Assembly (NCBI GenBank): GCA_944385935.1
Contig: CALWZC010000004.1
Span: 1-64,000, forward strand
Length of the DNA: 64,000 bases
Reading direction: 5' to 3'
Source: an uncultured Anaerofilum sp.
GTDB taxonomy: Bacteria > Bacillota > Clostridia > Oscillospirales > Ruminococcaceae
Of the stretch, positions 17,189 through 41,394 are shown piece by piece (position 1 is the first letter of the stretch; each line of letters opens with the position of its first letter). A model generated the notes under the pieces. The model was given only the letters and a program-made list of their open reading frames with translations, had not been told where the DNA came from and did not search any database. Made by a program: the position numbers and the translations under genes.

Positions 17189-17428
17189 AAAAAAACCGGC
17201 TTGAAAACCGGCAAAATATGCAATATAATATAGTAGATTGCATATCGCACAGCGCACCATACAGGCATGGCTGCCCACATGACAGTCACAGACCTTTCGG
17301 CGGATGTGACCAAGCCTGCCCTTTTGCCGATAGGGCAAACTTTCGGCGGAGCTGCCCTTTTTCCACCACGCAAAAAACAATCTCGGCGGCCCTCGTGGGG
17401 ATACTCATGCATTCCGCAACCTCTGTGC
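17189..17428 (-). promoter_or_regulatory. Lysine riboswitch (L box) with terminator
   Basis: The minus-strand leader upstream of asd carries the L-box core. AGAGGTTGCGG with GAGTAT lies at 17425-17402, GGGCAGCTCCGCCGAAAG at 17357-17340, CTATCGG at 17333-17327 and TGACTGTCA at 17287-17279, in the order and spacing seen in Bacillus lysC. It ends in a terminator, GCCGG/CCGGC followed by TTTTTTT, at 17212-17189. High lysine should end transcription before asd and dapA. Confidence 0.92.
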
Positions 17429-17434
17429 TTTTTT

Positions 17435-21507: not shown

Positions 21508-22980
21508 TCATGCCACAATCTGTGCATATCGTGGAGAACCAATCACATCCATCATATAGGCGTAAGGAGAAAGTGTATCAGATTGCAGCATAGAGAAGAT
21601 TCTAGGAGAGCAACCAGATACCAAAGCAACCCCCACATCATTTATCTCTACAGGTTGTTGCTGGTTTCTGCTGTCAACATTCCAAAAGATAACATCTGGC
21701 AGTTGGTAGCCAAACTGTGCAAAGGATTTTTGTGCATATTGGAAATTGGTCAAAGACCCATCTTCCACACAATAGTCAAACTCCATATCTGAGATAATAT
21801 AGAGCCGTTTGGGCATTTCTTCTTGTGGAATCTTGTATTTGATTGCTGTCTGAAGAATCAAGTCAAATACTTTTCTCAAGTTGGTGTTTGCCACCTCGTT
21901 GTATTGCATACAATATTGCAATTTATCATAAATGGTAGTTCCTTTAATTTTTACCAAACGAGGTTTTTCCGAAAAGGTAATAAAATGATTGTGAAACTTA
22001 CCAGTGTTTCGTTCTGCAAAATAGATGCCCAAGGACAACGCCACTGAAGCGGGGAAAATGCCTGAACCACCATACATGGTGCCATACATAGAACCAGAGC
22101 CATCCACTACTACAAGAGCATTTTCGTCACCAGCAAAATTCTCTTGTGCGTTCCATGTAACATCAATGGCTTTCTTTTCCTCTTCGGAAAGGGGGATTGT
22201 TGTTATGATAGGTTGCACAATTTCATAGGGAGCAAGGGTGCCGGTGTGAATGGTTTCCTTTCCTTCCTTCACACGATTCATAAATTGGTTATATCGTTCT
22301 GTATCATTGCGCAAAAATGCCTTGCGATACTTGAACATGGCTTTGGAAGGTTGTTTCGAGTAGTCAAAGGTATATTCTTTTAGGCGGAGATAATTTTCCA
22401 AAATGGCGATTTTCTCACGCAAAGCAGATAGTTTTTTTCGGTATGCAGAATCTTTCAGACCGAGAAACCGAGCAACCCGCTTTGCCTTTGCAATGGTGGC
22501 GGGGCTGGATGCATTGACAGAGGGAAGCCACTTTGCTAAAAGAGAAACAGACTGTCCTTGTTCCAATGCGGTGCAGTCTTGTTCAAACTGCGTTTTTATC
22601 TGCTCCATGGCTGCCCCTTCACAAGGAGTATCCAACAATACAAGAAGGTCATCATATCGACCATATTCAGCGATGTATGGGATGTTCTTTTCCACCGATT
22701 GAGGATGGTGAGCTGCCAGCCATTGCAAAAGAATCTGGAATACTCGCCGTTCTCCAAGACCGCCCCGAACATCCCGACCAAAAAACAAAATTTTCATGGC
22801 AAGGTCTGGATTTTCGGTATAGGCCACCAAAAAACGTTGCATAATTTCCCATTGTTCTGCATTGCGCAGGGCACCAATGGTGGCAAACAAATCCAAGCAA
22901 TGAGAACCGGTAGAAGAATATGTAATGGCTCCATTTTCGGTATAGGTTTTGTTTGCTTCTTGTTTCAACTGTTCCAGCAT
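21508..22980 (-). CDS. DUF2828 protein with vWA domain, Ro60-like in plan
   Basis: The 490-residue product has an N-terminal helical-repeat region: TENGAITYSSTGSHCLDLF, then FGRDVRGGLGERR at 68-79 and EYGRYDDLLVLL at 105-116. A C-terminal von Willebrand A domain follows, with an intact metal site D293-G-S-G-S297 and a second acidic strand IISDMEFD. This pattern is DUF2828. Helical repeats plus a MIDAS-bearing vWA is also the layout of TROVE/Ro60 proteins, which bind Y RNAs. The ATG at 22980 follows AAAGGGG. Immediately upstream on the same strand are two tRNA-mimic RNAs, with divergent WYL regulators beyond. RNA binding is inferred from this context, not seen. Confidence 0.85.
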   Translation of the reverse strand: MLEQLKQEANKTYTENGAITYSSTGSHCLDLFATIGALRNAEQWEIMQRFLVAYTENPDLAMKILFFGRDVRGGLGERRVFQILLQWLAAHHPQSVEKNIPYIAEYGRYDDLLVLLDTPCEGAAMEQIKTQFEQDCTALEQGQSVSLLAKWLPSVNASSPATIAKAKRVARFLGLKDSAYRKKLSALREKIAILENYLRLKEYTFDYSKQPSKAMFKYRKAFLRNDTERYNQFMNRVKEGKETIHTGTLAPYEIVQPIITTIPLSEEEKKAIDVTWNAQENFAGDENALVVVDGSGSMYGTMYGGSGIFPASVALSLGIYFAERNTGKFHNHFITFSEKPRLVKIKGTTIYDKLQYCMQYNEVANTNLRKVFDLILQTAIKYKIPQEEMPKRLYIISDMEFDYCVEDGSLTNFQYAQKSFAQFGYQLPDVIFWNVDSRNQQQPVEINDVGVALVSGCSPRIFSMLQSDTLSPYAYMMDVIGSPRYAQIVA

Positions 22981-22999
22981 AAAAATCACCCCTTTATCA

Positions 23000-23016
23000 T
23001 TGTATGGTTCATACAA
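23000..23016 (-). repeat. Hairpin between small RNA 2 and the DUF2828 gene
   Basis: TTGTATG and CATACAA flank a 3-base loop, directly abutting the 3' end of small RNA 2. It could be an RNA processing or stability element, or an operator. Confidence 0.55.
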
Positions 23017-23085
23017 GGCACAAAAAGATAAAACGGGATTTGAACCCGAGCTTGGAAGCCTCCACCAAAAGTTGCTGTATGTGCC
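23017..23085 (-). ncRNA. Small RNA 2: short RNA ending in a tRNA T-arm mimic
   Basis: A 69-nt element closed by GGCACA (23085-23080) with TGTGCC (23022-23017). Inside, in RNA order, are the box ACAGCAAC (23078-23071), a hairpin TTTGG/CCAAG (23069-23051) and a T-arm copy CGGG-TTCAAAT-CCCG (23048-23034). The T loop is canonical, but the acceptor, D-arm and anticodon arm of a tRNA are absent, so this is not a decoding tRNA. It shares the closing stem, the box and the flanking GAAA with small RNA 1, so the two are paralogous. It lies 36 bases before the DUF2828 start. Confidence 0.72.
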
Positions 23086-23171
23086 TTTCATTTTTCAAGA
23101 TGCGTTTGTTTCTTTTACTCAATCGCGAATAAAGAAAATTTGCTGTTAGCATCTTATTGAACCATATCCAA

Positions 23172-23276
23172 GGCACCATTTTTTTGAAGTGGGATTCGAA
23201 CCCACGTTAGAGGCAATGTTCTTGCCCCTCGCTATAACCACTAAGCAATTCAACCCTTGTAGTTGCTGTTGGTGCC
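23172..23276 (-). ncRNA. Small RNA 1: tRNA-mimic cloverleaf inside a closing stem (Y RNA-like)
   Basis: A 105-nt element closed by GGCACCA (23276-23270) with TGGTGCC (23178-23172). Just inside is the box ACAGCAAC (23269-23262). A cloverleaf then follows with tRNA-like connectivity. It has a 5-bp acceptor-like stem TTGAA/TTCAA (23253-23249 with 23188-23184), a 2-nt link, a D-arm with loop TAGTGGTTAT (23246-23231), and a 1-nt link. A 7-bp anticodon-position arm with loop AGAACAT (23229-23209), a 3-nt variable loop, and a T-arm GTGGG-TTCGAAT-CCCAC (23205-23189) complete it. The overlong anticodon stem, the lack of U33, the 5-bp acceptor and the missing CCA rule out an ordinary tRNA. Confidence 0.78.
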
Positions 23277-23374
23277 TTTCTTGGTACTAGAATACACCCG
23301 GAAAGCAGGAAAATCACGGAAAAAAAGTTGCGAACATAGCAGTAGACCAACAAAAGGGGGATACAATTCTTTTC

Positions 23375-23422: not shown

Positions 23423-24670
23423 ATGGCATACAGTGAACTGATAAAAGACTTTGAAAGTATTCGTGCCTATATGCGGGATTTTTATGTGTATGGATTTAAG
23501 AGCCGCAATGAATATGACAAAAAAAGTGCCCGCAGTTATGACAACGAGCGACGGAGAATTGAAAGCTGGTTAGGGGAGTATATGTCTTTCCATTACACAG
23601 GCAACAGTAAAAATGTATTTTTGTCTGTGGATAGTCGTACCATTTCCGCAAACCCTCTTTACAAAGCATTCAAAGCCAAAAGTTTTACCAACAAAGATAT
23701 TACACTTCATTTTTACATTTTGGATATGTTGGAAGAAGGACGAGCCTTGACTGTTGGGGAGATGATAGAGGAAATCAACAGGAAGTATCTTCACTATTTT
23801 GACAAGCCCATTTCCTTTGATGAATCTACTGTCCGAAAAAAGCTAAAAGAGTATGTTTCCATAGGGCTTCTTTGTGTAGAGAAAAAGGGTAGAGAGGTAC
23901 GATACAAACGAACCGACCTTCCCACCGTTTCCCTTACTTCTTGGAAAGATGCCCTTGCTTTTTACAGTGAGGAAAGCCCTTTAGGGATAATAGGTTCCTT
24001 TTTGTTGGATAGGTTGCAAGGCGTTCCCGACTTTTTTCGGTTTAAGCATCATTATATGGTGCATACCTTGGATAGTGATATCTTGTGCCAGCTTTTGGAG
24101 GCAATCTATACACAACAACGAGTAAAGTTGACCATTACAAACCTGAGAAATGCACTGGAATACCAAAGAAGTTTGTGCCCTCTAAAAATCTATGTCAGTA
24201 CCCAATCTGGCCGGCAATATCTCCTAGGGTATCATTATGGTAGCAACCGAATAGCTTTTTTTCGGTTGGACGCCATCAAAAAAGTGGAAATCGGTTGCAA
24301 AGAGGAGTGTTTTTCTCGCTATTTGCAATTACAACAAAAATTTGACCAGCACCTTTGGGGAGTGTCCAGAGGAAATACACAAGCCCTAGAACATATTGAA
24401 ATGACAATCCATGTGGAGAATGATGAACAATTTATTGTCCAGCGACTGAAAAGAGAAAAGCGGCATGGTACAGTAGAAATGATAGACGAGCACACCTATC
24501 GATTTGTTGCAGATGTTTATGATGCTACTGAGATGTTGCCATGGTTGCGAACATTTATTGGAAGAATTGTAGACCTTCAATGCACAAATCCTGTGGTAGA
24601 AAAGGGGTTTTTTGAGGATTTACAAACAATGGAAACACTATATGGAGATGACAAACATGCTGTTTCATGA
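23423..24670 (+). CDS. WYL-domain transcriptional regulator 1
   Basis: The 415-residue protein has an N-terminal winged HTH (about 80-165, FDESTVRKKLKEYVSIGLL recognition region), a central WYL domain (about 230-300, with LKIYVSTQSGRQYLLGYHYG and FFRLDAIKKVEIG) and a C-terminal WCX-type extension. WYL domains sense nucleic acid or nucleotide ligands in several defence and RNA-repair settings. GGGGAG precedes the ATG. Divergent from the small RNA-DUF2828 unit and overlapping WYL regulator 2, it is the likely controller of the locus. Confidence 0.85.
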   Translation: MAYSELIKDFESIRAYMRDFYVYGFKSRNEYDKKSARSYDNERRRIESWLGEYMSFHYTGNSKNVFLSVDSRTISANPLYKAFKAKSFTNKDITLHFYILDMLEEGRALTVGEMIEEINRKYLHYFDKPISFDESTVRKKLKEYVSIGLLCVEKKGREVRYKRTDLPTVSLTSWKDALAFYSEESPLGIIGSFLLDRLQGVPDFFRFKHHYMVHTLDSDILCQLLEAIYTQQRVKLTITNLRNALEYQRSLCPLKIYVSTQSGRQYLLGYHYGSNRIAFFRLDAIKKVEIGCKEECFSRYLQLQQKFDQHLWGVSRGNTQALEHIEMTIHVENDEQFIVQRLKREKRHGTVEMIDEHTYRFVADVYDATEMLPWLRTFIGRIVDLQCTNPVVEKGFFEDLQTMETLYGDDKHAVS

Positions 24671-40185: not shown

Positions 40186-41394
40186 TTACTCTTCATCCCC
40201 AGCTTTAAAGTTATAGATGGGGCGAAGGATTTTAACGACATCTGCTGTTGGGGTAATATTGTCCAAAATATCTTGCATTCCCTTGTATGCCATGGGGCAT
40301 TCATCCAGAGTGCTTTTGCTTACAGAGGTAGTGTAGACATCTGCCATCTGTTTTTTGAATTCCGAAACGGTAAAAGATTGCTTTGCTTGAGCACGGCTCA
40401 TTAGGCGACCAGCCCCATGGGGAGCAGAAAAGTTCCAATCAGGATTGCCTTTTCCCACACATAGCAGACTACCATCCCGCATATTGATGGGGATGAGAAT
40501 TTGCTCACCAGCTTGTGCCGAAACGGCACCTTTCCGAAGAATCATGTTTTTGGTATCAATGTAGTTGTGAATGGTGGTAAATTGTTCCTCAATATGAAGT
40601 TTCATTCCCTTTATCATTTCATCCATAATGGCTTGGCGGTTTAGTGCAGCAAAGTGCTGTACAATCTGCATATCATGGATATAATCTTCAAACAATTTAT
40701 CCGACACATAAGCCAAATGCTTGGGAATGTTGGTTTGCTTTAGATTTTTTATCCGCTTGATTTCCTTTTGAATTTCCTTCTGTTTGCCTTGTTTTTTCAT
40801 TTCGGCAATTAGCTTTGCGATGGAACGTTCATCTGTTCCGTTCAAAGCCTTATATCCTTCCTCTTGGTAATACTTAGCAACTTCCAATCCTAAATGGCGG
40901 CTACCAGAGTGAACCACCAGATAGATATTACCATCGTCGTCTTTGTCCACCTCAATAAAGTGGTTTCCACCTCCCAATGTACCAATGCTTTTTTCTGCTC
41001 GCAAAATGTTTACATGGTCTCCACAGCGTAGCTGTAATAGGTCAACTTCCCTCAAATAGGGATGTGGCTTTTGACGGATGGCAAAGCCAGAAGGGATTTT
41101 TTGGTATATTAACTTATCCAGCTTTTGTAGTTCAATGTGTTTTTCTCGGATGCGGACGGTTTCCATGCCACAACCAATATCTACCCCAACCAAATTGGGG
41201 ACAATCTTGTCTGTAATGGTCATGGTGGTGCCAATGGTACAGCCTGCCCCAGCGTGGACATCGGGCATAAGGCGAATTTGACTGTTACCAGCGAACTCCT
41301 GATTGCATAATTCAACGATTTGTGCAATGGAGGTGCTGTCTACTACATCGGTAAAAACCTTTGCAGTATTGTATTTTCCTTGAATTTCAATCAT
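40186..41394 (-). CDS. rtcB: RNA-splicing ligase RtcB
   Basis: Joins RNA ends carrying 2',3'-cyclic phosphate or 3'-phosphate to 5'-OH, using GTP and manganese. The 402-residue product has the metal and active-site motifs intact: D45 and H47 in DVHAGAG, D72 and C75 in GVDIGCGM, H145 in GGGNHF, H162 in VHSGSR, and the guanylated H326 in HGAGR. AAGGAG precedes the ATG. It follows the DnaI-like gene by 40 bases on the same strand. No archease or RtcA lies beside it. With the tRNA-mimic locus 15 kb away it suggests RNA repair, but the two are separate units. Confidence 0.95.
   Translation of the reverse strand: MIEIQGKYNTAKVFTDVVDSTSIAQIVELCNQEFAGNSQIRLMPDVHAGAGCTIGTTMTITDKIVPNLVGVDIGCGMETVRIREKHIELQKLDKLIYQKIPSGFAIRQKPHPYLREVDLLQLRCGDHVNILRAEKSIGTLGGGNHFIEVDKDDDGNIYLVVHSGSRHLGLEVAKYYQEEGYKALNGTDERSIAKLIAEMKKQGKQKEIQKEIKRIKNLKQTNIPKHLAYVSDKLFEDYIHDMQIVQHFAALNRQAIMDEMIKGMKLHIEEQFTTIHNYIDTKNMILRKGAVSAQAGEQILIPINMRDGSLLCVGKGNPDWNFSAPHGAGRLMSRAQAKQSFTVSEFKKQMADVYTTSVSKSTLDECPMAYKGMQDILDNITPTADVVKILRPIYNFKAGDEE

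What the first reader, a model, noticed from the sequence alone, without database searches (positions are those of the whole stretch)
23172..23276. Full cloverleaf with tRNA linker lengths, but not a decoding tRNA
Small RNA 1 keeps tRNA connectivity exactly (2-nt, 1-nt and 3-nt links, zero between T-arm and acceptor) and a perfect T-arm GTGGG-TTCGAAT-CCCAC with a GG-bearing D-loop. Yet its acceptor stem is 5 bp, the anticodon-position stem is 7 bp, U33 is absent, there is no CCA, and the whole is enclosed by a 7-bp GGCACCA/TGGTGCC stem. This looks like a tRNA captured as an RNA module.
Basis: seen in the sequence. Interest (0 to 1): 0.8.

Follow-up and report, generated by a model that had tools for sequence, protein, structure and literature searches.

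The report
tRNA-mimicking Y RNA array beside Ro60-like gene
The tRNA-shaped RNA is the first of three small "Y RNAs" beside a gene for a bacterial relative of the Ro60 autoantigen; relatives in many bacteria and phages carry arrays of such RNAs that copy different pieces of tRNA, including exact anticodon loops, which suggests baits for enzymes that attack or process tRNA.

Summary
On the minus strand, 23278-23169, a tRNA-ordered cloverleaf (23253-23184, 5-bp acceptor) is closed by a 9-bp stem; 0 of 100,000 shuffles give it. It is not a decoding tRNA.

It is the first of three RNAs with one scaffold, AAGRYRC-NN-ACAGCAA...CUUG, upstream of a DUF2828/DUF7788 gene. That protein's AlphaFold model matches Ro60 over its whole length (Z 24.1), so the RNAs are best read as bacterial Y RNAs. 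I found 101 such RNAs upstream of 34 of 37 relatives, and more beside 61 of 80 viral homologues (115 sense, 2 antisense). RNA1's cloverleaf recurs with compensatory changes in six other genomes. In several relatives rtcB lies between array and Ro-like gene.

Other arrays hold permuted tRNA modules (YrlA-like) and hairpins with exact anticodon loops (Lys-UUU, Phe-GAA, others): 11/100 bacterial and 18/97 viral RNAs, against 1 and 1 on the opposite strand.

Y RNAs that mimic tRNA are known. The DUF2828 arrays, their motif, the acceptor-attached cloverleaf and the anticodon loops appear undescribed in the papers I could read. Best mechanism (inferred): Ro-bound baits or decoys for tRNA-acting enzymes, possibly anticodon nucleases.

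The parts
23169..23278 (-). Y RNA 1 (the finding): 9-bp closing stem, ACAGCAA motif, tRNA-ordered cloverleaf, trailing CUUG
23263..23269 (-). ACAGCAA motif next to the closing stem; presumed Ro-binding determinant
   Evidence: near-invariant in 100 bacterial elements; role inferred
23184..23253 (-). tRNA-like module of Y RNA 1: acceptor 23253-23249/23188-23184, D-arm 23246-23231, anticodon-position arm 23229-23209, T-arm 23205-23189
   Evidence: Rfam tRNA 31.8 bits; covariation over 7 genomes
23096..23155 (-). Y RNA 2: same stem and ACAGCAA motif, short insert without tRNA likeness
23014..23087 (-). Y RNA 3: same stem and motif, insert with UGGU and a T-arm (CGGG-UUCAAAU-CCCG) only
23314..23334 (-). 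conserved promoter/operator element TTCGCAACTTTTTTTCCGTGA upstream of the array
   Evidence: same element at similar spacing before most arrays; function inferred
23289..23294 (-). probable -10 box TATTCT; places the transcription start at or just before Y RNA 1
   Evidence: position relative to the first Y RNA, conserved in relatives
21508..22980 (-). Ro60-like protein (DUF2828 + DUF7788), start codon at the conserved position 22980
   Evidence: Pfam, alignment of 38 homologues, AlphaFold model against Ro60
23423..24670 (+). WYL-domain regulator, divergent from the array
   Evidence: Pfam WYL 29.8 bits, cut-off 21.8
24612..25583 (+). second WYL/WCX-type regulator; similar proteins sit before the arrays of relatives
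   Evidence: weak WCX match; relatives
40186..41394 (-). RtcB RNA ligase of this genome, 17 kb from the array (adjacent to it in relatives)
   Evidence: Pfam RtcB, ORF

Best explanation
RNA1 is a Y RNA. Shown: it shares one scaffold (closing stem, ACAGCAA, CUUG) with its two neighbours and with some 200 RNAs elsewhere, all beside genes for Ro60-fold proteins of the DUF2828 family; its insert is a conserved tRNA-ordered cloverleaf attached through a shortened acceptor stem. Inferred: the DUF2828 protein holds the closing stem and ACAGCAA motif, and the insert is displayed to an enzyme that normally acts on tRNA. The most likely use is bait or decoy: the RNP presents tRNA parts (elbow, cloverleaf, in relatives whole anticodon hairpins) that occupy or capture tRNA-acting enzymes, such as anticodon nucleases of toxins or phage-defence systems, alongside RtcB repair and under WYL control. 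Likelihoods: Y RNA of a Ro-like RNP about 0.9; that the module engages tRNA-acting enzymes about 0.65; that nuclease decoy is the main use about 0.35-0.4.
For: Scaffold linked to DUF2828: 101 elements upstream of 34/37 genes, shuffles near 0; 61/80 viral loci, 115 sense to 2 antisense; none of 20 motif hits elsewhere in the genomes has the stem and tail. Ro fold: pLDDT 89.9; the 13 best Foldseek hits are Ro60/TROVE; Z 24.1 over 413 residues to 1yvp, first non-Ro hit 11.3. Cloverleaf: 8 pairs with double changes, 96.6% of cells paired, slid controls 36-54%. Hairpin loops identical to real tRNA anticodon loops: 11/100 and 18/97 RNAs against 1 and 1 on the reverse complement, 12/110 against 0.16 by shuffles. 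rtcB between array and Ro gene in G132, G226, G228, G445 and probably G507. The PARIS nuclease AriB cuts tRNA-Lys(UUU), Thr(UGU) and Asn(GUU) (PMC12409363); Lys(UUU) is the loop displayed most often and Asn(GUU) also occurs. For Salmonella YrlA, Hughes et al. propose competitive inhibition of an anticodon nuclease as one possibility (PMC7790460).
Against: No RNA or binding data for this locus. RNA1's own middle arm has an 8-bp stem and a 5-nt loop without U33, so it is a poor mimic of an anticodon-nuclease substrate. Most array members show no tRNA part that I could recognise. Salmonella YrlA was not cut by the anticodon nuclease there (PMC7790460). In the best-studied case Y RNA tethers Ro to PNPase for RNA decay, which would explain an elbow mimic without decoys. 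RtcB is 17 kb away in this genome.
Confidence: 0.6

Rival explanations
1. RYPER-like scaffold: the Y RNA's tRNA-like module tethers the Ro-like ring to PNPase or another nuclease and steers decay of structured or damaged RNA; the tRNA likeness serves docking, not decoy.
For: This is the role reported for Deinococcus Rsr-Y RNA-PNPase (reviewed in PMC8394870; PMC7790460). Elbow-only modules such as RNA3 fit docking.
Against: It does not predict exact anticodon loops, different loops at like positions in related arrays, or RNAs whose insert is only an anticodon hairpin.
Confidence: 0.35
2. Sensor: tRNA-damaging enzymes cut the displayed modules; cut Y RNAs alter the RNP or feed the WYL regulators and switch on repair.
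For: WYL-type genes and a conserved operator-like element; rtcB in the operon of relatives; Salmonella's operon is induced by tRNA fragments (PMC7790460).
Against: No ligand is known for these WYL proteins, and I did not see WYL genes beside the annotated phage homologues examined.
Confidence: 0.15
3. A decayed tRNA gene or chance cloverleaf without function.
For: Marginal Rfam score (31.8 bits, cut-off 29) and short acceptor.
Against: Compensatory changes over seven genomes, invariant scaffold, promoter and synteny; 0/100,000 shuffles.
Confidence: 0.02
4. A working or processed tRNA: the module is excised and used in translation.
For: Elbow and links are tRNA-like; some relatives have a 7-nt loop with U33.
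Against: 5-bp acceptor, no CCA, no U33, no 7-nt anticodon loop in RNA1; ARAGORN finds nothing; the acceptor runs on toward the closing stem.
Confidence: 0.02

Closest known systems
YrlA-type bacterial Y RNA (Rfam RF02553; PDB 6CU1)
   Same: Ends paired in a closing stem, tRNA-like module, gene next to a Ro-like gene; some relatives (L009, L005) have the circularly permuted module and weak RF02553 matches.
   Different: RNA1 is in normal tRNA order and attached through the acceptor, with all four arms; YrlA is circularly permuted against tRNA (PMC11472068) and mimics D, T and acceptor arms (PMC8394870). No RF02553 match for RNA1. TROVE-linked Y RNAs of the same phylum carry GGUUACUUCG-like sequence, not ACAGCAA.
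Salmonella rsr-yrlBA-rtcBA RNA repair operon
   Same: Ro-like protein, Y RNAs and RtcB together in several relatives.
   Different: WYL-type genes instead of RtcR; DUF2828 instead of TROVE; larger Y RNA arrays; rtcB not adjacent in the window.
Ro60 / Rsr (TROVE domain, PF05731)
   Same: Full-length fold match, helical-repeat part plus vWA.
   Different: No TROVE Pfam match, about 12% identity, no TROVE protein in this genome.
'Ro-like RNA binding protein' of mycobacteriophages (e.g. LeBron gp53) and DUF2828 proteins of Listeria phages
   Same: Homologues, 37-39% identical; in Listeria phage A511 three ACAGCAA elements precede the gene. A paper on the related phage CKA15 already suggested Rsr and Y RNAs (PMC12282133).
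   Different: That paper did not define the elements or their tRNA parts; my detector found no element at LeBron.
Phage T5 tRNAs that overcome the PARIS defence
   Same: Supplying RNA for anticodon-nuclease targets Lys(UUU) and Asn(GUU) (PMC12409363).
   Different: Those are whole tRNAs; these are Ro-linked partial mimics.

Membership tests
Bacterial Y RNA (broad class) | 5' and 3' ends pair in a closing stem around a variable module | tested here: met
   9-bp stem
Bacterial Y RNA (broad class) | encoded next to a Ro60 homologue | tested here: met
   adjacent DUF2828 protein with Ro60 fold
Bacterial Y RNA (broad class) | bound by the Ro protein | not testable with these tools
   needs pull-down or CLIP
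YrlA (RF02553) | reaches the family's gathering score | tested here: not met
   no match for RNA1; relatives L009 40.2 and L005 30.1 bits, cut-off 69
YrlA (RF02553) | circularly permuted tRNA-like module | tested here: not met
   RNA1 is in normal order; permuted modules occur in relatives
tRNA (RF00005) | gathering score | tested here: met
   31.8 bits against 29; genomic tRNAs 46-72
tRNA (RF00005) | 7-bp acceptor, 7-nt anticodon loop with U33, CCA or free 3' end | tested here: not met
   5-bp acceptor, 5-nt loop, no CCA; ARAGORN none
Ro60/TROVE protein | TROVE profile match (PF05731) | tested here: not met
   Pfam gives DUF2828 and DUF7788 only; genome search none
Ro60/TROVE protein | Ro60 fold: helical-repeat part plus vWA | tested here: met
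   Z 24.1, 413 residues, rmsd 4.0 to 1yvp
RNA repair operon (Ro, Y RNA, RtcB) | RtcB in the operon with Ro and Y RNAs | tested here: inconclusive
   met in relatives; in the window rtcB is 17 kb away

The most novel reading that the evidence does not exclude
DUF2828 Ro-like RNPs carry evolvable arrays of Y RNAs that display pieces of specific tRNAs, including exact anticodon loops, as decoys against anticodon nucleases; both bacteria and phages use them in the conflict over tRNA cleavage.
Probability: 0.35. Interest if true: 0.92.

Novelty: new variant of a known kind. Interest (0 to 1): 0.78.

Why it matters
It ties a large uncharacterised protein family (682 of 50,697 phage records, and many bacteria) to Ro60 and to a recognisable RNA partner, gives a simple sequence signature for finding such RNAs, and shows that Y RNAs mimic tRNA in several ways: acceptor-attached cloverleaf, permuted module, elbow, and single anticodon hairpins. 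It makes the open question of what bacterial Y RNAs are for directly testable, because the displayed loops predict which tRNA-acting enzymes are involved.

Tried and rejected
Decoding tRNA: rejected. Chance or pseudogene: rejected. YrlA membership of RNA1: no match. TROVE Ro in this genome: none. The first AlphaFold run without relatives was poor (pLDDT 41) and not used. A sequence search of PDB with the protein profile found no Ro; only fold comparison did. The genome-contig scan found nothing. An extra copy of the 16-mer AAGGCACCAACAGCAA at G000:C1:36948 is not called as a Y RNA by the detector. My first anticodon-loop library included ARAGORN calls inside arrays (L045, L046), so I rebuilt it from the window genome's own tRNAs only. 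Chen 2014, Wang 2018, Sim 2020 and Burroughs 2016 were not held, so novelty against them is untested. No element was detected at LeBron or KVP40, and only a low-scoring one at EC6, with antisense hits as well; such homologues may use other RNAs. A loop of Gln (L055 -394) rests on a weak A/U-rich 4-bp stem and may be chance.

Full report
1. What is there. The feature is on the minus strand. Reading 5' to 3' from 23278: AAGGCACCA (stem), ACAGCAA, a short spacer, then UUGAA-UU-GCUUAGUGGUUAUAGC-G-AGGGGCAAGAACAUUGCCUCU-AAC-GUGGGUUCGAAUCCCAC-UUCAA, then a short A-rich spacer, UGGUGCCUU and G. That is a tRNA-ordered cloverleaf with tRNA link lengths, a 5-bp acceptor and an elongated middle arm. Rfam gives tRNA 31.8 bits; real tRNAs of this genome score 46-72 and ARAGORN calls none here. 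A strict parser finds it in 0 of 100,000 dinucleotide shuffles. The MFE alone does not draw the D-arm or acceptor, so those rest on comparison.

2. It is one of three. Two further RNAs follow, 23155-23096 and 23087-23014, with the same 5' stem pattern, ACAGCAA and final CUUG. RNA3 has a T-arm; RNA2 has no tRNA likeness that I can see. Directly downstream on the same strand is a 490-residue protein, DUF2828 plus DUF7788.

3. The protein is a Ro60 relative by fold. With 38 sequences in the alignment the AlphaFold model has pLDDT 89.9. The 13 best Foldseek matches are Ro60/TROVE structures; VIA-align gives Z 24.1, rmsd 4.0 over 413 residues to 1yvp, and the first non-Ro hit, a vWA domain, is at 11.3. 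It has no TROVE profile match, and no TROVE gene was found in this genome.

4. The scaffold goes with the protein. In relatives from the same family, order and phylum, 34 of 37 loci have 1-8 elements upstream, 101 in all; shuffles give almost none and antisense strands few, none in most loci. In 148 family genomes the 16-base pattern also occurs away from DUF2828, but of 20 such places none has the paired stem and CUUG tail. Three divergent DUF2828 genes (L064, L065, L067) have no array.

5. Promoter and operon. A conserved element, TTCGCARCTTTTTTTCCGTGA or close to it, lies some tens of bases before the first Y RNA in most arrays, followed by a -10-like box; in the window this makes RNA1 the first in the transcript. 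In G132, G226, G228 and G445 WYL-type genes precede the array, and rtcB lies between array and Ro-like gene; G507 has the same array and spacing as G132, but I did not list its ORFs. The window's own rtcB is at 40186-41394.

6. Conservation of RNA1. Seven RNAs of the same type from seven genera align. The cloverleaf plus closing stem has 96.6% of cells paired and eight pairs with changes on both sides; sliding the partner by 1-3 columns gives 36-54% and 0-1 such pairs. In G459 and G315 the middle arm is a standard 5-bp, 7-nt anticodon arm with U33 and CAU; in RNA1 it has changed.

7. Other modules. Two elements (L009, L005) hold circularly permuted tRNA modules, T-arm, acceptor hairpin, D-arm, with sub-threshold YrlA matches. 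Others hold anticodon hairpins, for example GGGGA-CUGAAAA-UCCCC (Phe GAA) and CAUGA-CUUUUAA-UCAUG (Lys UUU). Using the anticodon loops of this genome's own tRNAs: 12 of 110 RNAs against 0.16 in shuffles. With the reverse complement as control, which keeps hairpins: 11 of 100 against 1 in bacteria and 18 of 97 against 1 in viral loci. In the first RNA of like arrays the loop reads Asn (GUU) in G459 and G315, though with a shifted stem, but Lys (UUU) in G498.

8. Phages. The protein has homologues in 682 of 50,697 phage records, some already named Ro-like. Of 80 viral contigs, 61 have the same RNA elements, 115 sense and 2 antisense. Listeria phage A511 has three before gp57. In the related phage CKA15 the authors found very abundant non-coding RNAs upstream of the homologue and suggested Y RNAs and Rsr (PMC12282133); I have not shown that those transcripts are these elements.

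9. Control from TROVE. Y RNAs next to TROVE genes in the same phylum carry permuted tRNA modules but GGUUACUUCG-like sequence instead of ACAGCAA. So the two Ro branches appear to use different RNA signatures while both display tRNA-like parts.

10. Mechanism. Shown: scaffold, synteny, fold, covariation, anticodon-loop identity. Inferred: binding by the Ro-like protein; display to tRNA-acting enzymes; decoy use. The decoy idea is supported by exact loops, loop exchange, rtcB and phage carriage, and by the fact that AriB of PARIS targets Lys(UUU), Thr(UGU) and Asn(GUU) tRNAs (PMC12409363). It is weakened by RNA1's own non-canonical loop and by YrlA not being cut in Salmonella (PMC7790460). A PNPase scaffold remains a serious rival.

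11. Novelty. That Y RNAs mimic tRNA, and that YrlA is a permuted tRNA, is known (PMC8394870; PMC11472068). Searches of the held library found no paper on DUF2828 with Y RNAs or on anticodon-loop Y RNAs, but the key primary papers were not held, so this is a provisional statement.

Noticed in passing
window 17242-17433 (-): Lysine riboswitch (85.3 bits) upstream of an aspartate-semialdehyde dehydrogenase-like ORF.
   Followed up: no
L045 874-949 (+), L046 3505-3579 (-): Between two Y RNAs lies a tRNA-like cloverleaf with an acceptor helix extended to about 12 bp and anticodons AAU or AAA, without ACAGCAA.
   Followed up: partly
L064, L065, L067: Divergent DUF2828 genes (39-41% identity to the window's) with no Y RNA array upstream.
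   Followed up: no
L051 3070 (+): A second copy of the TTCGCARNTTTTTTTCCGTGA element lies downstream of the Ro-like gene.
   Followed up: no
L080-L087: TROVE-linked Y RNAs in the same phylum: permuted tRNA modules with GGUUACUUCG-like sequence, a different signature from ACAGCAA.
   Followed up: partly
L188 3190-3454 (Listeria phage A511): Three ACAGCAA elements before gp57; the homologue in CKA15 was found in purified virions (PMC12282133).
   Followed up: partly
window 22981-23091 (-): The longest ORF reading of the Ro-like gene starts upstream of Y RNA 3 and runs through it; homologues support the start at 22980.
   Followed up: yes
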